From assembly GCA_937862865.1 (NCBI GenBank), contig CALMFJ010000015.1:1-48416 (forward strand): 48,416 bases of DNA, read 5' to 3'. How positions within the stretch are numbered: position 1 is the stretch's first letter; each line of letters starts with the position of its first letter. Origin of the DNA: an uncultured Pseudomonadota bacterium. Lineage in GTDB: Bacteria > Desulfobacterota > Syntrophorhabdia > Syntrophorhabdales > Syntrophorhabdaceae. Position numbers and translations under genes: made by a program. This document shows positions 13,374-44,526 of the stretch, one piece after another. The notes below the pieces were generated by a model. It did no database searches. It was not told the DNA's origin and saw nothing but the letters and a program-made list of their open reading frames with translations.

Positions 13374-13580
13374 TTATCGGATATCGGGGCCGGGGCTTAA
13401 ATGAGGAAAATCGATGGTTATTGCCCCGACGGGGCAATCGGCGGCGCAAAAACCGCATTCTTCGCAGAGGTCGGCGGCAATGGAGGCAGCGTCGTTCTCG
13501 ATGGTTATTGCCCCCGGGGGGCAAATATCGGCGCAGCTCCCGCAGGCGGTGCATTTTTCTTTATCAACGATCGGTATCAT
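13374..13580 (-). CDS. Small 2[4Fe-4S] ferredoxin coupled to the flavin oxidoreductase
   Basis: A 68-residue bacterial-type ferredoxin with two classical motifs, CTACGSCADICPPGAI and CEECGFCAADCPVGAI, enough for two [4Fe-4S] clusters. Its ATG overlaps the stop of the upstream flavoenzyme gene (TGATG at 13582-13578), indicating translational coupling, so it is probably the electron donor or acceptor of that enzyme. The C-terminus (FPHLSPGPDIR) is a short tail. It is followed 44 bp later by cheV, which has its own ribosome-binding site. Confidence 0.9.
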   Translation of the reverse strand: MIPIVDKEKCTACGSCADICPPGAITIENDAASIAADLCEECGFCAADCPVGAITIDFPHLSPGPDIR

Positions 13581-15517
13581 CAGATCACCATTCCCAGACG
13601 GTACCCGTCATGAATTGCATTAAGGAGGCGCCGTGGCTTCTTAGCGTCCCCGATAAAATAGACCTCATCCGCCAGTGATCCCGCAGACTCCCTCCAGACA
13701 CCCTCTTCCGGGTACATGATCGCCATGACGACCGTGTCGAACTCCGAAGACCCCTCACCCGACGCACCGGTAAAACGGACGCCATTGCCCTTTATCTCAT
13801 TGACGGAGGTCCGCATCATGAAATTGACCTTTTTCTTTTTCATGAGTGCCATGTATTGCCAGAAGTAGAACGGGTTCACATCACGGCCCGGTTTTGGGGC
13901 CTCGTCGAGGACCGTGATCTCGTAATCCCCTTTTCTGAGCAGATAGACCGCGACGCCGAGCCCGACGCCGCCGGCCCCTATTATCGCGATCCTGCGGCCG
14001 GGCCTCACCGTTTCCATCATAACGTCCCGGGGAAGAAGGACGCCTGCAGGGACCGGCTTCGCCCCGGGGCCCGACGCGATGACGACGACATCGGGACTAT
14101 CTTTACGTACCGTCGACGGACCGCAATCGACCCCGGTCTTTACTGTCACCCCCGTCTTCCGGCAGAGCTCTTCCAAAGTATGCACAGGCCGCAGGAGCTC
14201 GACCGCCCCCGGATCGACCCGGGACGCGATGAGGATATTCCCGCCGACCGTCTCGTTCTTCTCAAACACCGTCACGTTATGCCCCTTCTGCCGGGCAGTG
14301 ACGGCGCACTGCAGGCCAGCCGGCCCGGCGCCCACGATCGCCACGTTCTTCTTCGTTTTCGGCCGCTCGAACCCGTAATATCCCCAGTTCGGCTCGCCTT
14401 CATGGCCGAGGCTCGGGCGTACCGAGCACATTATCGGCTGATGGTAATACAACCGTGAAAAACAGACGTTGCACGCTATACAGGGAATGATCTCTTTCTC
14501 CCTGCCTTCCCGTACCTTGTTCGGGAACTCCGGGTCGGCGATCATCGGGCGGCACATCTCCACAAAATCTATCTGCCCCTGCGATATCGCCTTTTCCGGG
14601 ACGTGGGGAAGGAACTGGCGGAAGGCCATCATAACAGGTACGTTGACAGCTTTTCTTACCGCCTCGGCAATGTACAGCCAGTGCCCCATGGGAACATCGC
14701 GCGTTATGACAGATTGGGATGATTCATGCCAGCCGACGGTGACGCTCAAATAATCAGCGCCTGCTTTTTCAGCTATCCTGAAGCTCTCGACGCTTTCCTC
14801 AAAGGTGTTGCCGCCCCTGTCGTCGAGCAATTCATGCCCGCAAAGGCGAATGCCAACGGGCATGTCCCCCACTTCGGCCTTGACCGACCCGATGACCTCG
14901 ACCATGAGCCTGCACCGGTCGGCAATATCGTCACCGCCGTATTCGTCCGTCCTTTTATTGGTATAACGCGATAGAAAGGTCGAGATGAGATACCCCACGA
15001 TCCCGGACAGCTCGATCATGTCGAAACCGGCCTCTCGTGCGCGCCGGGCCGCATCGACATGGTCACGCACGGCCTGCTTTATCTCTTCGGGTGTGATCTC
15101 GCGCGGGGGTTTGAAGTACGATAATTTCTGGGGGACTATCGACGGCATGAGGCAGTAATCGAGCTCGATGCCGCCTTCCCTGCCGCAGTGGAGTATCTGG
15201 ATGCTCGACAGGGCCCCGTTCGCGCGTATGACGTCCGCAAGACGCTTGAGCCCCGGGATGTACCGGTCGTCATTGATCGACATCATCCCCTTGAAGCCCT
15301 TCCCCTCGCCTTTTTTATCAGGGTACGCCCCCTGGGTCGTGACAATGCCGGCGCCGCCCTTTGCCTGTGCCTCCATGTAGGCCACCTCTCTGTCGCTCAC
15401 GTAACCGTCCCCATAGGGGAAGTTCGTTTCGGTGGCGGCATATTTGATCCTGTTCTTCACGACGAGCTTGCCGATCGATCCCGGTTGAAAAATATGCGGA
15501 TATCCTTCCATGATCAT
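13580..15517 (-). CDS. FMN/FAD/Fe-S oxidoreductase of the 2,4-dienoyl-CoA reductase / TMADH family
   Basis: 645 residues. Residues 1-350 form the old-yellow-enzyme TIM barrel (FMN). The [4Fe-4S] motif CIACNVC...C (11 residues between third and fourth Cys) has the CxxCxxC spacing of trimethylamine dehydrogenase rather than the CxxCxxxC of E. coli FadH. Residues 385-645 form the FAD/NAD(P) module (VAIVGAGPAGLQCAVTARQKGHNVTVFEKNETVGG, then IAIIGAGGVGLGVAVYLL). Such enzymes reduce enoyl- or dienoyl-CoA double bonds, or act as enoate reductases. The coupled ferredoxin gene suggests ferredoxin exchange. In this organism a ring-derived dienoyl-CoA is a plausible substrate, but that is not shown by sequence. 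A second ATG at 15511 has the better-spaced AGGA site. Confidence 0.85.
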   Translation of the reverse strand: MIMEGYPHIFQPGSIGKLVVKNRIKYAATETNFPYGDGYVSDREVAYMEAQAKGGAGIVTTQGAYPDKKGEGKGFKGMMSINDDRYIPGLKRLADVIRANGALSSIQILHCGREGGIELDYCLMPSIVPQKLSYFKPPREITPEEIKQAVRDHVDAARRAREAGFDMIELSGIVGYLISTFLSRYTNKRTDEYGGDDIADRCRLMVEVIGSVKAEVGDMPVGIRLCGHELLDDRGGNTFEESVESFRIAEKAGADYLSVTVGWHESSQSVITRDVPMGHWLYIAEAVRKAVNVPVMMAFRQFLPHVPEKAISQGQIDFVEMCRPMIADPEFPNKVREGREKEIIPCIACNVCFSRLYYHQPIMCSVRPSLGHEGEPNWGYYGFERPKTKKNVAIVGAGPAGLQCAVTARQKGHNVTVFEKNETVGGNILIASRVDPGAVELLRPVHTLEELCRKTGVTVKTGVDCGPSTVRKDSPDVVVIASGPGAKPVPAGVLLPRDVMMETVRPGRRIAIIGAGGVGLGVAVYLLRKGDYEITVLDEAPKPGRDVNPFYFWQYMALMKKKKVNFMMRTSVNEIKGNGVRFTGASGEGSSEFDTVVMAIMYPEEGVWRESAGSLADEVYFIGDAKKPRRLLNAIHDGYRLGMVI

Positions 15518-19743: not shown

Positions 19744-21021
19744 ATGGGTAAAGTAGAAGTGTTCGAGAACAAGCGCCCCGTACTCGGTATCAACAGTCTT
19801 GGAAGGATCGGAAAATTGACGCTCTGGCATCATGTCGCGCGGAAATATTTCCAGGAGATCGTCGTTAACCTGGGCCGTGATGTCGGCAACGGTATTCCGG
19901 CCATAGCCCAGATCATTGAAAAAGATGCAACGTATGGAAGCATCCATAAGTTCCTTTACGGTATTAATTCGAAGCGGATAATCGAGATCGTCGACGAGAA
20001 GAAAGGGAAGCTCCTGATAGACGGCATCCCCGTCACGGTCCTGCGCGAGAAACGGAACCCCGCCGAGATAGGATGGCGGGACCACGCCGTGGACCTCGTG
20101 ATCGAGGCGACCGGGAAATTCCAGGACCCGACAATCGCGGCGGACGATAAGGGAGGCAGCATAAAAGGCCACCTTGCCAGCGGCGCAAAGGCGGTCATCA
20201 ACTCATCGGCATTCAAGATCAAGAACAAGGCGCTGTCCACCCCGGATGACGCCGTAACGCTGATCTACGGCATAAACCACACCGCCTTCGACTATAAGAA
20301 ACACAAGGTGCTGTCCGCGGCATCGTGCACGACGACCGGCCTTGCGCACATGATCAAACCGCTCCTCAACAACGCGGCGACAAGCAAGATACTGACGGCA
20401 TCGATGTCGACAGTGCATGCCGTCACGAATTCACAGAGCATCCTCGACAAGACGCCGAAGGCCGGTGAAAAGGACCTGAGGAAGAACCGCAGCACGCTCA
20501 ACAATATCATCCTCACATCGACCAATGCGGCCGCAGCGCTCATCCAGGTCATTCCCGAAGTGAAGGACATTGGCTTCATGGCCGATTCCATCCGCGTCCC
20601 GACGAACACCGAATCGCTGATCGTCCTGAACCTGACGTTCCAGACACGCGCCGGCGCCGATGGCAAAAAGGAACCCGTCACAACGAAGGTCCTCAACGAC
20701 CTGTACCAGAAGGCAGCCGATAACGATCCCGAGCATCTCCTCATTTTCTCGACGGAGCAGAACGTTTCAACCGACCTGATAGGCACCGACGCAGCGATAG
20801 TCATCGAAGGCCAGTTCAACCACACAAGGACCGCACACATCGATGTCGATGTCGCAGGGATCCCCAATGTGCCGGAAGAATTATTGAAAGCCGTGCCGGA
20901 GGGAAGCATGAAGGTGCCCGTCGTCCACGCCAAGGTCTTCGGCTGGTACGACAACGAATACGGCAGCTACACCAACCGCATGGGCGACCTGGCGGTATAC
21001 GTCCACAAAAGCATGGCCTGA
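19744..21021 (+). CDS. gap: Long-form glyceraldehyde-3-phosphate dehydrogenase
   Basis: 425 residues, about 90 longer than classical GapA, matching the extended bacterial GAPDH type. The NAD fold is GINSLGRIGKLTLWHH near residue 18. The catalytic Cys lies in SAASCTTTGLAH (classical ASCTTNCLAP) near residue 198. The downstream SMSTVHAVTNSQSILDK holds the His expected in catalysis, followed by DSIRVPTNTESLIVLNLTF and, near the C-terminus, WYDNEYGSYTNRM. It oxidises glyceraldehyde 3-phosphate to 1,3-bisphosphoglycerate in glycolysis, or the reverse in gluconeogenesis; a syntroph making sugars from acetyl-CoA would use the latter. It is monocistronic, with its own promoter, a GGAGGT site and a terminator. 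Confidence 0.9.
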   Translation: MGKVEVFENKRPVLGINSLGRIGKLTLWHHVARKYFQEIVVNLGRDVGNGIPAIAQIIEKDATYGSIHKFLYGINSKRIIEIVDEKKGKLLIDGIPVTVLREKRNPAEIGWRDHAVDLVIEATGKFQDPTIAADDKGGSIKGHLASGAKAVINSSAFKIKNKALSTPDDAVTLIYGINHTAFDYKKHKVLSAASCTTTGLAHMIKPLLNNAATSKILTASMSTVHAVTNSQSILDKTPKAGEKDLRKNRSTLNNIILTSTNAAAALIQVIPEVKDIGFMADSIRVPTNTESLIVLNLTFQTRAGADGKKEPVTTKVLNDLYQKAADNDPEHLLIFSTEQNVSTDLIGTDAAIVIEGQFNHTRTAHIDVDVAGIPNVPEELLKAVPEGSMKVPVVHAKVFGWYDNEYGSYTNRMGDLAVYVHKSMA

Positions 21022-21142: not shown

Positions 21143-21170
21143 ATGGCCTATCGCCCATAGCCTATCGCCT
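21143..21170 (-). repeat. Heptanucleotide repeat, RGGCNAT family, right arm over a stop codon
   Basis: On the minus strand AGGCGAT, AGGCTAT, GGGCGAT and AGGCCAT follow one another. The TAG stop (21171-21169) of the dikinase-like gene overlaps the first unit (TAGGCGAT). Confidence 0.8.
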
Positions 21171-24100
21171 ACAATGTTATTTTATACGATTCCTCTTTCT
21201 CTATTTCATGTTTTCCGAAGTAGACCGCACCCGTCCAGCCGTCTATGCTGATGTGGTCGCCGCCGCGGATGATGCGGTCTTCGCACTGGCTGAACGCCTC
21301 ATTCTCATACACGTGCAGCTTGCTGAAACCAACCACCCCTACCTTGTTGAGCTGCGGTATCGTCACGGCTGCGTGGGATGTCCCTCCGCCGCGCGCGGTC
21401 AATATGCCTTCGACCTTGAGAATGATGCCGACGTCATCGGGGACCGTATCCGGCCTGATGAGGATGAGGGGTTCCTTCATGTTCTCCTTGCGGTACTTCT
21501 TTATCTCTTCCTCGGAATAGACCACCCGGCCTGTCAACGCGCCGCCGCTTACCCCGATCCCGATGCCCATAAGCGATTCCTCGAGCTCGGGGGCGTCCTT
21601 GAACGTCAGCACCTTCCCGGCCCCGCGCTGCACCATGTCGCGGGTCTGCAGGACATAGAGGCCTTTCGGGTATTTGCTTTCGAACGTAAATTCGATCTCC
21701 TGGTGGTTGAACCTCTTCTCATACACGAGGAATTCTGCCACCCTGACAAGCTCCGCGTATATGTCGGGAAAGCGCTTTTCAAGGGAGATTATTGACTGCC
21801 GCATCTCGGAGACACGCTGTTTTTCTGATATCGGGTAGGTTTCAACGAGGCCTGACACGATATCGTCCCCCTGCACGCCGAATATAAAATCCCCATACAG
21901 TGAGACGTTCTGTGACGACCCCCGCGGGTCGCGCGTGAAAATAACCCCTGATCCCGAGTTCTCATTGAGATTGCCGAAAACCATGGCCTGAACGACAACC
22001 GCCGTGCCCCACTCGTCGGAGACGTGCATCTGGTGACGGTATATCTTGGCCTGCTGAGAATCCCACGACGCGAATACGAGCATGATGGCGTCCTGGAGCT
22101 GTTTCTGCGGATCGTTGCTGATAAAGATGCCGCGGTCCTCCATCGCCTGTTTGTACGACAGGGCCAGCTGTCTCATTTCGTCGGGCCGGAACTGGATCTT
22201 CTTCGTCACTCCGTACTTGAGCTTGAAGCTGTTCATGATCTCGTCGAAGATATTCCTTTCCAGGCCCTGGAACATCCCCCACGTCTGCAGGAACCTCCGG
22301 TACGAATCCCATGCCGCCCACCGGTACTGCGGGTTCCGGCTCAAACCCTCGGCGATGGTCTCGTTGAGCCCCACGTTCAGGAACGAATGCATCATCCCGG
22401 GAAGAGATATCGTGGCGCCGCTCCTGACGGACAGCAGCAGCGGGTTCCGCGGGTTCCCGTATTTCTTGCCCGTTGCATGCTCCAGGGACTGGATCTCGCT
22501 GAAGATCCGGGCGCTTAAGTCCTTGAACATGTACTTGTACCCTACGATCGCCTCATACCCCCTGAAAACCTCGGTCGTAATTATGAAACCGGGAGGTACG
22601 GGAAAACCGAGCGAGGCCATCTCCTTGAGGAAATATCCCTTGTTGCCCAGCAGCACCTGGTTGTCGATGTCCTTTTTCTTCTTGTATATCGGGGAGATCG
22701 TCAGCTCGGGAATATAGGCCATGACAAGGTTGAGTATCTGTTTATTGTCCTTGAACTTCTCCGCTTCCTTTCCGAGTGCGCGGATTATCGAGTTGATAAA
22801 ATTGTCAAAGATCTGCAGGGCGAAGGCGGTCGCGATGATCGACCGGACAAAATTCTCCGAATGCCTGTAGATGGTCTCCTGGACAGATTTGCCCTCCCGG
22901 CCGTCGCCCTTCGCCGCCATCATCTGGCCGACTATTATCGGCAGGTTCTGGGCGTGCGCATCTATGTAGTACTCGCGGATAATACCCTGGATCTGTTTCG
23001 AGATGAACTGGAAGATATCGATATACTGATCGATGGAGAACTGCCGTATCTGGAGTGCCGAGGTAATGTACCGCATCTTCGACACGAGGCCTTCGGTCGC
23101 GATCCCATCGACATCGAGCGCCTTCACGTAGAGCCAGAGATACTTGTGGATCGTCATCAGCGTGCTCTTCGTGATGAACTTGAGGTTCAAGGACTGGATG
23201 AGCTTGTCGAAAAGCATCGTGGCAAGGCTTTCAAGGCGGAAGGTAAGGCCCATGGCCTCGAATTTCTCTTCCCTGTATGTCCCGTACATCGACGGAATGC
23301 CGGCCGCTATGTGCCTTTTATGGTAGATATTCTCGAAATACTCTGTCTTGACGGGGGAAAGTATCTTCTCTTTGAGTGCCGCCAGCATGTCGAGGGTCGT
23401 CGTGAGCGCGGCATAATGGTCCTTCTTCTGCAGCGCCCTCTTGAGAGAGCGGATCTTTGGAATCTCCAGCATACATGATATTTCAAGGTCCCGCAGGAGG
23501 TCGATATGCTGGTGATTATATTTTTTGTATATCAGCTGGTAGTAGCGGAGGATGAGCCGGGCCCTCTCCCTCTCCCTTTCGCTGATCTTGCGTATGCCCT
23601 TGACCTCCTTCAGTATGCGCGCAGAGTCCCATTCCAGGAAATTCCTCGGGTCCTCTTTGGCCCGCATCAGGAGGTTTTTGAACGCTATATGAAGCTCGTC
23701 GAACCATTCGCCGCGGTTCTCAACCTGGTCGAACACCTCCGGGGGCAGGTGGGGCTTTATATACGATTTGTCGCCGGTTGCCCAGTAGCGGAAGATATCC
23801 TCGGTAAAGGGAACGAGAAGGCTGTTGCTTTCGACATGCGACTGCTTCCTGAGATAAAAAACGAGCCTGTCGTTCCGCGCCGAAAGTTCATCGACGTTTG
23901 TCGAGGTTTCGCGCAGCTCACCTTCGGCCCCTATCTCTGTGAAGAATATTGGAAATAAGCGAAGAAGCTGCTTCGCCAGGTTGTAGGCCGGCGTGATATC
24001 CGAGTTCAAAAACCCGGATATCTCCTTCTGGAACAGGTCGGTATCCTTGACGAAAACGCCTTTGCGTTCAAGGTTGATTATGAGGGCCGATAGAAGCCTC

Positions 24101-25380
24101 TTCGTCCACCTCGGCCTGAAACCTATTATCCTGAGCCACGACCGGACATTCTCGATATGCGACGGGTTTGACTTGATCTGCCATTCCTCGGTCGAACCCT
24201 CGATATCAGGATACTGGAAGCCGAAGGCGATCAGTTCGTCGATAAAGGAATCGACGAGGGGATGGTTGTTCTGGTCGAAAATGCCTCGCGCGAGCGTGGT
24301 GATGCAGTCTATGATCTTCGACTGATGCTGGCCTCCCCGGCCCGTACGCTTCATCGACGCAAAGACCTTTTTGACAAATTCTTGAAGGTCCTGGTCCGCC
24401 GTCTGGCTGAACACCTTTCCCAGGCACCTGTTGATCTCTATAAGCGCCGAGGCGTGGATATCTATGAGACCGGGCACATTGAGGACCCGGAACAGAAAAT
24501 CGAGCTTGACGAGGAACCGTCTGTCAGAGAATGCCTCCGACCTTTCCAGGTCATCGGCGATGAGCATGTACCCGTTCACGATCTGAAAATAATCCGGTAT
24601 GTCGAGATATCCCCATATCCGTGAGCCAGCTTCTGACCGGACAGCCTCGTGCAGGGCCTCGAGCCGGCCGGTGAGCTCCCGGATATGACCGTGGCCCAGC
24701 GGTTCGACAATCCTTGCGAACTGTTCCTGCACTTCCGCCTCATTGCCTTCCGGATCGAACCATTCGATCGGGTCGGGCTGCGTCAACCAGAAATCATACG
24801 TTCCCCGGAACATGCCGTAGAGGAGACCTCCCAGCGCCCCGTCATCAAAACCTCGCCCCAGTTCTTTGAACAGACCCAACGTCGTTTTGAGGTACGTGGA
24901 CGATTTTCTCAAGAAGGGGTGCTCCCCTCTTCTCGCATATTCGAGGAGCGACGAAAAAATGGCGGAGATAAGCTCCACGTTCCTGTCGAGTTTGTCCTGG
25001 CTCTTCCCCAGCATCGTGTTGATGAACTCAAACAGATACCTGACGGCGCTGTCCTGTACGCCTTCGTCCCGCGCACCCAGAATGGTGCTCATGTAAATGT
25101 CGGAAAGAAGGTGCAGGGCCTCGAGCCCGTTCTCATGACGGTTGAAATCATAGAAATCGCCTATCGAAAGGCTCTTTACATGCGTCAGCACGTAATCCCA
25201 GTTGACGAACGGGTGATTGAGCTCGATAAGCAGGTCTTCGAGACGCCGCAGGATGCCGTAATGCCCCTGCATCATGTCCATGAGGACCCTGTACTTCTCC
25301 GGTATCTCGACGATCGCCTTCGTCCTCTCGAGGTTGATCTCGAGCGCACTTGATTTAAAAGGGGCCTCTATATTTTCCAT
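21169..25380 (-). CDS. Large PPDK-like phosphotransferase lacking the PEP/pyruvate barrel
   Basis: 1403 residues. Residues about 905-1255 are the PPDK/PEP-synthase ATP-grasp domain (NKGYFLKEMASLGFPVPPGFIITTE, LLLSVRSGATISLPGMM, GSGVIFTRDPRG, VLQTRDM). Residues about 1275-1385 are the swivelling phosphohistidine domain, with predicted catalytic His1336 in ARGGGTSHAAV. The protein then stops: the C-terminal PEP/pyruvate TIM barrel of PPDK, present in both PpsA and PpdK, is absent. Residues 1-900 are helical, charged and without a domain I recognise. Enzymes with only ATP and His domains plus another module, such as rifampicin phosphotransferase or glucan water dikinase, phosphorylate other substrates. 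A role on a glucan is conceivable near glgP but unproven. It has no clear partner; gap is convergent and etfA is downstream of its 5' end. Confidence 0.8.
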   Translation of the reverse strand: MENIEAPFKSSALEINLERTKAIVEIPEKYRVLMDMMQGHYGILRRLEDLLIELNHPFVNWDYVLTHVKSLSIGDFYDFNRHENGLEALHLLSDIYMSTILGARDEGVQDSAVRYLFEFINTMLGKSQDKLDRNVELISAIFSSLLEYARRGEHPFLRKSSTYLKTTLGLFKELGRGFDDGALGGLLYGMFRGTYDFWLTQPDPIEWFDPEGNEAEVQEQFARIVEPLGHGHIRELTGRLEALHEAVRSEAGSRIWGYLDIPDYFQIVNGYMLIADDLERSEAFSDRRFLVKLDFLFRVLNVPGLIDIHASALIEINRCLGKVFSQTADQDLQEFVKKVFASMKRTGRGGQHQSKIIDCITTLARGIFDQNNHPLVDSFIDELIAFGFQYPDIEGSTEEWQIKSNPSHIENVRSWLRIIGFRPRWTKRLLSALIINLERKGVFVKDTDLFQKEISGFLNSDITPAYNLAKQLLRLFPIFFTEIGAEGELRETSTNVDELSARNDRLVFYLRKQSHVESNSLLVPFTEDIFRYWATGDKSYIKPHLPPEVFDQVENRGEWFDELHIAFKNLLMRAKEDPRNFLEWDSARILKEVKGIRKISERERERARLILRYYQLIYKKYNHQHIDLLRDLEISCMLEIPKIRSLKRALQKKDHYAALTTTLDMLAALKEKILSPVKTEYFENIYHKRHIAAGIPSMYGTYREEKFEAMGLTFRLESLATMLFDKLIQSLNLKFITKSTLMTIHKYLWLYVKALDVDGIATEGLVSKMRYITSALQIRQFSIDQYIDIFQFISKQIQGIIREYYIDAHAQNLPIIVGQMMAAKGDGREGKSVQETIYRHSENFVRSIIATAFALQIFDNFINSIIRALGKEAEKFKDNKQILNLVMAYIPELTISPIYKKKKDIDNQVLLGNKGYFLKEMASLGFPVPPGFIITTEVFRGYEAIVGYKYMFKDLSARIFSEIQSLEHATGKKYGNPRNPLLLSVRSGATISLPGMMHSFLNVGLNETIAEGLSRNPQYRWAAWDSYRRFLQTWGMFQGLERNIFDEIMNSFKLKYGVTKKIQFRPDEMRQLALSYKQAMEDRGIFISNDPQKQLQDAIMLVFASWDSQQAKIYRHQMHVSDEWGTAVVVQAMVFGNLNENSGSGVIFTRDPRGSSQNVSLYGDFIFGVQGDDIVSGLVETYPISEKQRVSEMRQSIISLEKRFPDIYAELVRVAEFLVYEKRFNHQEIEFTFESKYPKGLYVLQTRDMVQRGAGKVLTFKDAPELEESLMGIGIGVSGGALTGRVVYSEEEIKKYRKENMKEPLILIRPDTVPDDVGIILKVEGILTARGGGTSHAAVTIPQLNKVGVVGFSKLHVYENEAFSQCEDRIIRGGDHISIDGWTGAVYFGKHEIEKEESYKITL

Positions 25381-41850: not shown

Positions 41851-44526
41851 GTGAGCCTTGACATTACATCCACGGAAAAGCCGGTCGGGAACTTCCTGTC
41901 CTCGCTCCTCGAGGCCTATCCCGACGCCACCATGCGGGATATTGCGGTCCTTTTCACCGATGTCGTCGGCTCGACAACGTTTTTCAAGACCCATGGCGAT
42001 ATCCGCGGCAGGGAGATGCTCAGGACCCATCACCGCATGGCAATGTCGATCATCGAGACCTATGGCGGACGGCTTATAAAAGAAGTCGGGGATTCGGTCC
42101 TCGTCTACTTTCCGGAAACGGTCGATGCACTGAATGCCTCCATAAAGATCCAGCAAAAGTTCTTCCTTCATAACATGGAAAGCATCGAAGAGGACCGTAT
42201 ACATGTCCGGGTCGGCCTCCACCACGGCCGGGTCATAGTGGAGGACACGGATATTTACGGTGACGTGGTCAATGTCGCCGCAAAATTGACCAACCTGGCG
42301 GGCAGCGACCAGATATTCGTTTCCCAGGAGATATTCGAGAGCACAAAGCAACTTCCGTCGATCCAGTTTGAAGGCATCGATTTCTGGAAAATGCAGAAAG
42401 TTCCCGACGGCCTCAAGATCTACAAGGTCATCTGGGAACATGCCTTCGCGGCGGCCCCGTCAAAGAAGGTCTTCGTCATCATGGCCCATGACGCTGCGCG
42501 TGTCTCTTTCAGGATCACTGAAGAGGACATCAATACCCCCGCCCCCGGAACGAACGGCAGCCCTCTGAAACCCTGCGTGTCTCTGAACCGGACGCCCGGA
42601 AACGACCTCGTTGCTGTGTATGATACGATTCACGGCGCGGTCAGCGCCTCGCAGGCCATATTTTCCCGTCTATTAAACCGTTACCCATCCGACAAGGGGC
42701 AGCTGCCTGTAAAAATATACGTCAGGTCCGCCTCCGTGCTCGACGAAAAAAAAGTCCTTTCCCACGGTGCAGGGAACGATCTCGACGGAGTGGCGTTCGG
42801 AGGCATCTATGTCAGCCCGGAAGTTTTCCATTATATGAGCAATTATTACCGGGTATCGGGTGAAGAGGCGGCCGGCTTCAAGGAGGCCGGCAATGTTTAT
42901 GCGCTGCTCGATATGGCAAACGAGGCGGAAGTCCCCTCTCAGCCGGCAGGGGACCCTGCAGCCGAACTATCCGCCATGATGTGCTTTTATTGCGGAAGCA
43001 GTCGTCATATGTCATCATCGTGCCCCTCAAAGGGCCTCGAAGAGACCGAAAGGCCCCTGGGTAAACTTGGCTACTTCTCCATCCAGGCCATCGAAGAGCT
43101 CGCCCGGTCGATCCAGAACCCTTCCGACGATATCAAGGCCTCTCCCCAGATGCTTTCCGCGGAATCGGAGCCCACAAAACAGGAGTTGATCGCACACGCC
43201 TTCTACGACCTCAAGAAGGTCTACCAGCTTCGCTTTCATCGGACGGTCTGGAACACAAATGCAAAATCCTGGGAGACGATGCTCTCCGGCATTATCGAGA
43301 ACCAGGGAGGGTTTGCATGGCTGGCACAAGATTCGCTCCGCGTGGGGAATTTCGATAAGGCGCGGTCCTTCGTCAACCTGGCGCTGGAACGAAAACCGAG
43401 GGATTACAAGGCGTGGTGCGTATCAGGGTTCCTCAATATAGAGAACGGCAACCCCGGGGCAGCACGCAACGACTTCGAGACGGCGCTCGAATGTGCCGAC
43501 GCGGGGATCCCGAAGACGTACGTCTCACTCATGCTCGCACGTCTCTACAAATTTAGCGGTGACCAGAAACGCTACAGGGAAATGATAAGCGCGATCCTGG
43601 CAGTCGACCCCACATGCAGGGAAGCCCGGTACGAGGACGTTCTCCAGAGGTTCACCGACAATAGCGAGAGGTCGGCGGTACAGCGCCTCATCGGGCTTGT
43701 CAGGGACCAGAGGGATTATTTTGTGATCGCGCTCATTGACCCGGAACTCAACGCATGGAGAAATGTCATCTATCCCCACGTGTTTGAAATACTCCTCGAG
43801 GTAAAGAAGGAAGCTGCCGGCCATTTCGAGGATGCAAAGAAGGAGATCGCAAAGGTACGCGCGCTGCTTGCCCGGGAAACACGTGAAACGATCGACCCGC
43901 TTCTCGTCGAGATAGAGCGGCTGGCCCTGTCCGAAAGCTATGCAGCCTGCCTCGATGTTCCATCGAAGTGCAGCAGTGTCAGGATCATGTGCAAGAATGC
44001 CCTCAACGAACAGGTCCACATGATAACCGACAATATACGGACGCTCAAACTCCGGATCGACAGAGTGAATGAGTTCCTCGCGTCATACCGTTATCCTCAT
44101 TTCATACAGAGGCACAGGCGACAGCTCGATCACCTCACGACATCGCTCAGGGGTATGGGGGACGTACGCATTTTTGCATCGTCCGCCGAATTTCAGAACT
44201 GCCACGATGCCTGCCAGGAGATATCACGTGAACTGTCATCAGTCGAAAACTCCGTGGAATACCTCGAAATATCCGCACAAATGATAACCGCGTGCTGGAA
44301 GTTCCTGAAGCACTCGTCGATCCTTTTTTCTATCGTCTTTTTCCTTGGGATCTTCATCTACCCCCTCGTCTCCGACCAGTTGAACGCTATCGTGTCCCGG
44401 TTCGACATTTCGCTCTTCCCGAACTCGTGGTCGCTGCAAAAATCCCTTCTGATCTTCGGCGGGATCCTGAGCCTCATCGCGTCTTTCTTTATCTCGGTCA
44501 AGGAAGCACTAAAAAGCAGAGAATAA
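41851..44526 (+). CDS. Class III adenylate cyclase with CCHC zinc knuckle and C-terminal membrane anchor
   Basis: 891 residues, starting at GTG 41851. Catalytic domain about 28-205: metal-binding Asp37 (VLFTDVVGST) and Asp81 (EVGDSV), adenine-specifying Lys77 and Asp134 (TDIYGDVVN), transition-state Asn141. The expected Arg four residues after Asn141 is Lys145 (VNVAAKL). Residues 378-391 read CFYCGSSRHMSSSC, exactly CX2CX4HX4C, the retroviral/CNBP-type zinc knuckle. A TPR-like helical region follows (WNTNAKSWETMLSGIIENQGG onward, about 470-640), then a coiled region, and two C-terminal membrane helices (about 821-841 and 866-884). It predicts a membrane-tethered cAMP-forming enzyme; input signal unknown. 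The ORF ends in a perfect palindrome. Confidence 0.88.
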   Translation: MSLDITSTEKPVGNFLSSLLEAYPDATMRDIAVLFTDVVGSTTFFKTHGDIRGREMLRTHHRMAMSIIETYGGRLIKEVGDSVLVYFPETVDALNASIKIQQKFFLHNMESIEEDRIHVRVGLHHGRVIVEDTDIYGDVVNVAAKLTNLAGSDQIFVSQEIFESTKQLPSIQFEGIDFWKMQKVPDGLKIYKVIWEHAFAAAPSKKVFVIMAHDAARVSFRITEEDINTPAPGTNGSPLKPCVSLNRTPGNDLVAVYDTIHGAVSASQAIFSRLLNRYPSDKGQLPVKIYVRSASVLDEKKVLSHGAGNDLDGVAFGGIYVSPEVFHYMSNYYRVSGEEAAGFKEAGNVYALLDMANEAEVPSQPAGDPAAELSAMMCFYCGSSRHMSSSCPSKGLEETERPLGKLGYFSIQAIEELARSIQNPSDDIKASPQMLSAESEPTKQELIAHAFYDLKKVYQLRFHRTVWNTNAKSWETMLSGIIENQGGFAWLAQDSLRVGNFDKARSFVNLALERKPRDYKAWCVSGFLNIENGNPGAARNDFETALECADAGIPKTYVSLMLARLYKFSGDQKRYREMISAILAVDPTCREARYEDVLQRFTDNSERSAVQRLIGLVRDQRDYFVIALIDPELNAWRNVIYPHVFEILLEVKKEAAGHFEDAKKEIAKVRALLARETRETIDPLLVEIERLALSESYAACLDVPSKCSSVRIMCKNALNEQVHMITDNIRTLKLRIDRVNEFLASYRYPHFIQRHRRQLDHLTTSLRGMGDVRIFASSAEFQNCHDACQEISRELSSVENSVEYLEISAQMITACWKFLKHSSILFSIVFFLGIFIYPLVSDQLNAIVSRFDISLFPNSWSLQKSLLIFGGILSLIASFFISVKEALKSRE

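What the first reader, a model, noticed from the sequence alone, without database searches (positions are those of the whole stretch)
21169..25380. A PPDK-like phosphotransferase with 900 unknown residues and no PEP/pyruvate barrel
ATP-grasp and swivelling His domains (His1336 in GGGTSHAAV) end the protein, so PEP or pyruvate cannot be the partner in the usual way. The N-terminal 900 residues must hold or recruit the acceptor, as in other dikinases acting on drugs or glucans. Adjacent glgP and gap suggest a carbohydrate link.
Basis: partly seen in the sequence, partly recalled or inferred. Interest (0 to 1): 0.6.

Follow-up and report, generated by a model that had tools for sequence, protein, structure and literature searches.

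The report
Dikinase paired with unusual GAPDH
This gene encodes a large enzyme with the two ATP-driven phosphate-transfer domains of pyruvate phosphate dikinase but, instead of the pyruvate-binding part, about 900 residues of no known family; it is almost always inherited together with an unusual glyceraldehyde-3-phosphate dehydrogenase, which points to an undescribed energy-coupling step in the sugar-making and sugar-burning pathway of many anaerobic bacteria.

Summary
In detail: the ORF (minus strand, 25380..21169, 1403 aa) ends in a PPDK-type ATP-grasp plus His-swivel module, with His1336 and the mapped PPDK ATP-site residues conserved in 109 relatives. No PEP/pyruvate barrel and no Pfam match to residues 1-905. 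Residues 385-897 fold confidently (pLDDT 91.7, pTM 0.90) into a helical domain rich in invariant Lys/Arg/His/Glu, with no significant PDB match.

The protein is a widespread family, found in 84 of 297 sampled genomes of the window's phylum. The glycogen link is not supported; the link to the neighbouring "gap" is very strong. That gene (GAPX) is a distinct ~420-aa GAPDH clade. It lies next to the dikinase in several phyla, in two orientations, and co-occurs with it in 83 of 84 genomes, even when unlinked. In several genomes the operon reads gapA-dikinase-GAPX-pgk-tpiA. In three genomes rated 100% complete GAPX is the only GAPDH found.

Best reading: the dikinase phosphorylates a carboxylate, most likely 3-phosphoglycerate, which GAPX reduces (or the reverse): a PPDK-like ATP/AMP/PPi bypass of phosphoglycerate kinase. 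The module and partnership are well shown; the substrate is inferred, untested. I found no description of it.

The parts
21169..25380 (-). dikinase-like protein (DK), 1403 aa
24229..25380 (-). residues 1-384: helical solenoid-like region, least conserved part
   Evidence: AF2 model of 1-905; generic HEAT/importin-like matches only, Z below 10
22690..24228 (-). residues 385-897: candidate acceptor domain, all-helical with one beta-hairpin, many invariant charged residues
   Evidence: pLDDT 91.7, pTM 0.90; invariants; no PDB or BFVD match at E<=0.001
23272..23334 (-). residues 683-703: hairpin with invariant KRHxAxxIPSMYG motif
21631..22668 (-). residues 905-1250: PPDK-type ATP-grasp domain
   Evidence: PF01326, TIGR01828 and PDB matches; PPDK K22, R92, R135 = K914, R986, R1029, plus E1228, E1230, Q1245, R1247 conserved
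21193..21573 (-). residues 1270-1396: swivelling phosphohistidine domain
   Evidence: PF00391
21373..21375 (-). codon of His1336, expected phosphate carrier
   Evidence: conserved in 109 relatives
19744..21021 (+). GAPX, distinct GAPDH-like partner, 425 aa, convergent with DK, 147 bp apart

Best explanation
DK is a barrel-less dikinase working with GAPX at the 3-phosphoglycerate / 1,3-bisphosphoglycerate / glyceraldehyde-3-phosphate step. The ATP-grasp domain would move a phosphate from ATP (with Pi, giving AMP + PPi as in PPDK) to His1336; the His domain would swivel to the helical domain 385-897 and pass the phosphate to the carboxylate of the acceptor, most likely 3-phosphoglycerate; GAPX would reduce the acyl phosphate to the aldehyde. 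It would thus be to phosphoglycerate kinase what PPDK is to pyruvate kinase. The invariant NxGR motif at the end of GAPX's second strand suggests NADP(H), hence mainly the gluconeogenic direction; the reverse (AMP + PPi to ATP) is possible. Shown here: the dikinase half-site residues, the separate conserved domain, the GAPDH catalytic residues of GAPX, the near-obligate pairing and the link to the gap/pgk/tpi genes. Inferred: the acceptor, the nucleotide stoichiometry, the cofactor and the direction.
For: PPDK-type half-reaction residues conserved in 109 relatives. Presence/absence of DK and GAPX agrees in 83 genomes, with 3 mismatches, all in genomes under 80% complete; 73 against 73 among 245 good genomes. 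The match holds inside six families that contain both states (f1, f3, f11, f12, f34, f50) and where the two genes are unlinked (e.g. G014, G145, G208). Adjacent in 76 of 78 loci where both were read, convergent in 40 and co-directional in 36, so pairing survived rearrangement; distance matrices correlate, r 0.92. Operon gapA-DK-GAPX-pgk-tpiA in several loci, PGK and TIM confirmed by Pfam. GAPX keeps the GAPDH catalytic Cys, His and phosphate-site Arg and is one clade apart from canonical GAPDH. In G028, G065 and G227, rated 100% complete, GAPX is the only Gp_dh_C match, so it plausibly handles glyceraldehyde-3-phosphate. Kinase plus GAPDH-fold reductase is the standard logic for carboxylate-to-aldehyde reduction (PGK/GAPDH, aspartokinase/ASADH, NAGK/ArgC; established knowledge).
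Against: No substrate was tested. Every genome checked, including those with GAPX as sole GAPDH, also has PGK, and the own genome has canonical gap and pgk, so no step is left unfilled. In G065 the dikinase gene is split by a frameshift while GAPX is intact, though the near relatives G028 and G227 are intact. The acceptor domain has no recognisable relative that would confirm 3-phosphoglycerate binding. About 385 further residues are unexplained. The distance correlation partly reflects shared ancestry of the genomes.
Confidence: 0.4

Rival explanations
1. DK phosphorylates or otherwise regulates a protein, most simply GAPX itself (or GAPDH/PGK), using its solenoid region as a docking surface; no small-molecule acceptor is involved.
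For: Near-obligate pairing and correlated divergence with GAPX; HEAT-like N-terminal region typical of protein binding.
Against: The most conserved region is not the solenoid but 385-720, with invariant Lys/Arg/His/Glu like a small-molecule active site. PPDK-type dikinases are metabolic enzymes as a rule.
Confidence: 0.2
2. DK and GAPX act in another carboxylate/aldehyde conversion, or DK phosphorylates a different small molecule such as glycerate, and GAPX handles a related phospho-aldehyde.
For: GAPX is divergent from known GAPDHs; canonical gap and pgk are usually also present.
Against: Gene order with gapA, pgk and tpiA; GAPX as only GAPDH in three complete genomes.
Confidence: 0.25
3. DK is a glucan dikinase working on glycogen.
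For: glgP lies 3 kb away in this window; a weak genome-level association with true GlgP.
Against: glgP is not a recurrent neighbour; dikinase-bearing genomes without any phosphorylase match; no carbohydrate-binding module found by Pfam.
Confidence: 0.05

Closest known systems
Pyruvate, phosphate dikinase (PPDK; TIGR01828, PDB 1kbl)
   Same: ATP-grasp followed by His-swivel domain in the same order, with the mapped ATP-site residues and catalytic His
   Different: No C-terminal PEP/pyruvate barrel; about 900 extra N-terminal residues; 383 bits against a cut-off of 843
Small-molecule dikinases: rifampin phosphotransferase (PMC4844700), HpeHI / CreHI / phenylphosphate synthase PpsAB (PMC12167813)
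   Same: ATP-grasp and swivelling His domains kept, acceptor domain replaced
   Different: In those the acceptor domain lies between ATP-grasp and swivel or on a second subunit with the swivel; here it is N-terminal to both and unrelated by the searches done
Alpha-glucan water dikinase (GWD)
   Same: Barrel-less dikinase with a large N-terminal region
   Different: GWD has carbohydrate-binding modules and the His domain before the nucleotide domain (own knowledge); neither is seen here
Type I GAPDH (TIGR01534) for the partner GAPX
   Same: GAPDH family with catalytic Cys, His and phosphate-site Arg
   Different: Separate clade with insertions, about 420 aa, NxGR in place of the usual cofactor acid motif, below the family cut-off

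Membership tests
Pyruvate, phosphate dikinase | PPDK-type ATP-grasp with ATP/Pi site residues | tested here: met
Pyruvate, phosphate dikinase | swivelling domain with phosphorylatable His | tested here: met
   His1336
Pyruvate, phosphate dikinase | C-terminal PEP/pyruvate TIM barrel | tested here: not met
   protein ends at residue 1403 just after the His domain; no Pfam match to a barrel
Pyruvate, phosphate dikinase | NCBIfam TIGR01828 curated cut-off (843 bits) | tested here: not met
   383 bits
Rifampin phosphotransferase / small-molecule dikinases | acceptor domain between ATP-grasp and swivel (or fused to the swivel subunit) | tested here: not met
   extra region is N-terminal; ATP-grasp and His domain are contiguous as in PPDK; RPH model 35.8 bits against 999
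Glucan water dikinase | carbohydrate-binding modules | tested here: not met
   no such Pfam match
Glucan water dikinase | phosphorylates alpha-glucan | not testable with these tools
   needs an assay
Type I GAPDH (partner GAPX) | catalytic Cys and His, substrate-phosphate Arg | tested here: met
   C195, H225, R284 invariant in 25 sequences
Type I GAPDH (partner GAPX) | TIGR01534 curated cut-off (367 bits) | tested here: not met
   279 to 303 bits in three proteins

The most novel reading that the evidence does not exclude
A new reaction of central metabolism: 3-phosphoglycerate + ATP + Pi <-> 1,3-bisphosphoglycerate + AMP + PPi, run by a barrel-less dikinase with a new acceptor domain and coupled to a dedicated GAPDH, as an AMP/PPi-linked alternative to phosphoglycerate kinase in anaerobes.
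Probability: 0.3. Interest if true: 0.9.

Novelty: new variant of a known kind. Interest (0 to 1): 0.7.

Why it matters
A two-gene unit present in over a quarter of sampled genomes of one phylum, next to or inside the triose-phosphate operon, has no assigned role. If it is an AMP/PPi-linked bypass of phosphoglycerate kinase it would change how energy budgets and gluconeogenesis of syntrophs and other anaerobes are computed, extend the dikinase family to a carboxylate acceptor, and add a new acceptor domain. The pairing makes it directly testable.

Tried and rejected
Fold searches of residues 1-905 and 385-897 against PDB and of 385-897 against BFVD gave only generic helical matches; absence of a match does not show a new fold. 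PADLOC found nothing. Literature searches for the gene pair, for a phosphoglycerate dikinase and for related terms found no description; only open-licence papers were searched. N-terminal extensions of some relatives to about 1550 aa were looked at: L114 and L116 carry only the same two Pfam domains, and the extensions may be start-site artefacts. The dikinase is rare in Bacteroidota (1 of 296), so those copies look like transfers. The locus L110 was mis-called as an antisense ORF and is ignored. An early idea that the pair replaces gap and pgk outright was dropped because pgk is present in all ten genomes checked.

Full report
1. Observation. The ORF lies on the minus strand, 25380..21169, 1403 aa. 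Its C-terminal 500 residues match PPDK: PPDK_N and PEP-utilizers in Pfam, TIGR01828 at 383 bits, below its cut-off of 843, and residues 907-1394 against PPDK residues 14-512 in the PDB. The protein ends there, so the PEP/pyruvate barrel is absent. Residues 1-905 have no Pfam match. The genome also has a separate PPDK-like gene on another contig.

2. The catalytic half. Mapping through the PPDK alignment, PPDK K22, R92 and R135 correspond to K914, R986 and R1029; E1228, E1230, Q1245, R1247, T1334 and His1336 sit in the conserved motifs. All but T1334 (107) are conserved in at least 109 of 110 aligned rows; the likely odd row is an ORF mis-call, L110. The ATP-to-His half-reaction therefore looks intact. 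The roles of these residues in PPDK are from established knowledge.

3. The unknown part. AlphaFold2 on a 51-sequence alignment gives a helical model for 1-905 (pLDDT 85.5); residues 1-384 resemble HEAT-type solenoids only in a generic way. Residues 385-897 alone, with 72 sequences, fold with pLDDT 91.7 and pTM 0.90: helices plus one beta-hairpin that carries the KRHxAxxIPSMYG motif. Invariant columns across 72 sequences include many charged residues (E486, R490, D497, E498, R511, K512, H515, K688, R689, H690, K706, window numbering). No PDB or BFVD match reaches E 0.001.

4. The family. 79 loci came from one genome scan, in several phyla. In a sample of 297 genomes of the window's phylum, 84 carry the N-terminal profile, nearly always once and in full length.

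5. The partner. Clustering the neighbours shows one recurrent gene, the GAPDH-like gene at 19744-21021, here called GAPX. It is about 420 aa, under the cut-off of every GAPDH model it matches, and forms one clade apart from canonical GAPDHs of the same loci (SH-aLRT 100). It keeps Cys195, His225, Thr228 and Arg284, i.e. the GAPDH catalytic pair and substrate-phosphate site, and has an invariant NxGR motif where canonical enzymes have an acidic cofactor-binding residue, which suggests NADP(H).

6. Pairing. GAPX is found in 85 of the same 297 genomes, 83 of them shared with DK. The three mismatches (G113, G005, G078) are genomes at 76, 79 and 62% completeness. Fisher's test is extreme but does not correct for relatedness; the better argument is that six families contain both states and the two genes agree in each, apart from the incomplete G113. 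In several genomes the genes are far apart yet both present. Among 78 loci with both, 40 are convergent and 36 co-directional, and the pairwise distances correlate with r 0.92. In G028 the two genes overlap by 4 bases.

7. Pathway. In several loci the order is gapA, DK, GAPX, pgk, tpiA (PGK and TIM confirmed). In others DK sits beside gapA without GAPX next to it. Three genomes rated 100% complete (G028, G065, G227) have a single Gp_dh_C match, GAPX, and one PGK. So GAPX probably works on glyceraldehyde-3-phosphate, and DK acts at the same step or on its product.

8. Mechanism. A kinase that makes an acyl phosphate, next to a GAPDH-fold enzyme that reduces it, is a known pattern. With the gene context the simplest acceptor is 3-phosphoglycerate. 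By textbook free energies, ATP + Pi to AMP + PPi would bring 1,3-bisphosphoglycerate formation much nearer to equilibrium than PGK does. This part is inference; I give it 0.4. Protein phosphorylation and another small-molecule acceptor remain open.

9. The glycogen idea. glgP is not a conserved neighbour, five dikinase-bearing genomes have no phosphorylase match, and the association with true GlgP is weak.

10. Known relatives. Rifampin phosphotransferase (PMC4844700) and the HpeHI/CreHI/PpsAB group (PMC12167813) show that ATP-grasp and swivel domains can be recombined with new acceptor domains. The present family does the same with a different, N-terminal domain, and its substrate seems to lie in central metabolism. 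I found no paper that describes it; subscription journals and preprints were not searched.

Noticed in passing
G065 contig C1 (locus L155, 2983-7150): The dikinase gene is split by a frameshift in this complete genome while GAPX next to it is intact; close relatives G028 and G227 are intact.
   Followed up: partly
L107, L112, L124 and similar loci: In many relatives the gapA-DK-GAPX-pgk-tpiA block follows genes that look like a hibernation factor, PTS-type EIIA proteins and RapZ, i.e. a phosphotransfer-regulation cluster; any link to the dikinase is untested.
   Followed up: no
window 41851-44526: An 891-aa ORF whose start looks like a class III nucleotide cyclase and whose end looks like membrane helices; judged by eye only.
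   Followed up: no
window 13580-15517: Old-yellow-enzyme family reductase, best NCBIfam match to the mycofactocin-associated FadH/OYE model but well under its cut-off.
   Followed up: no
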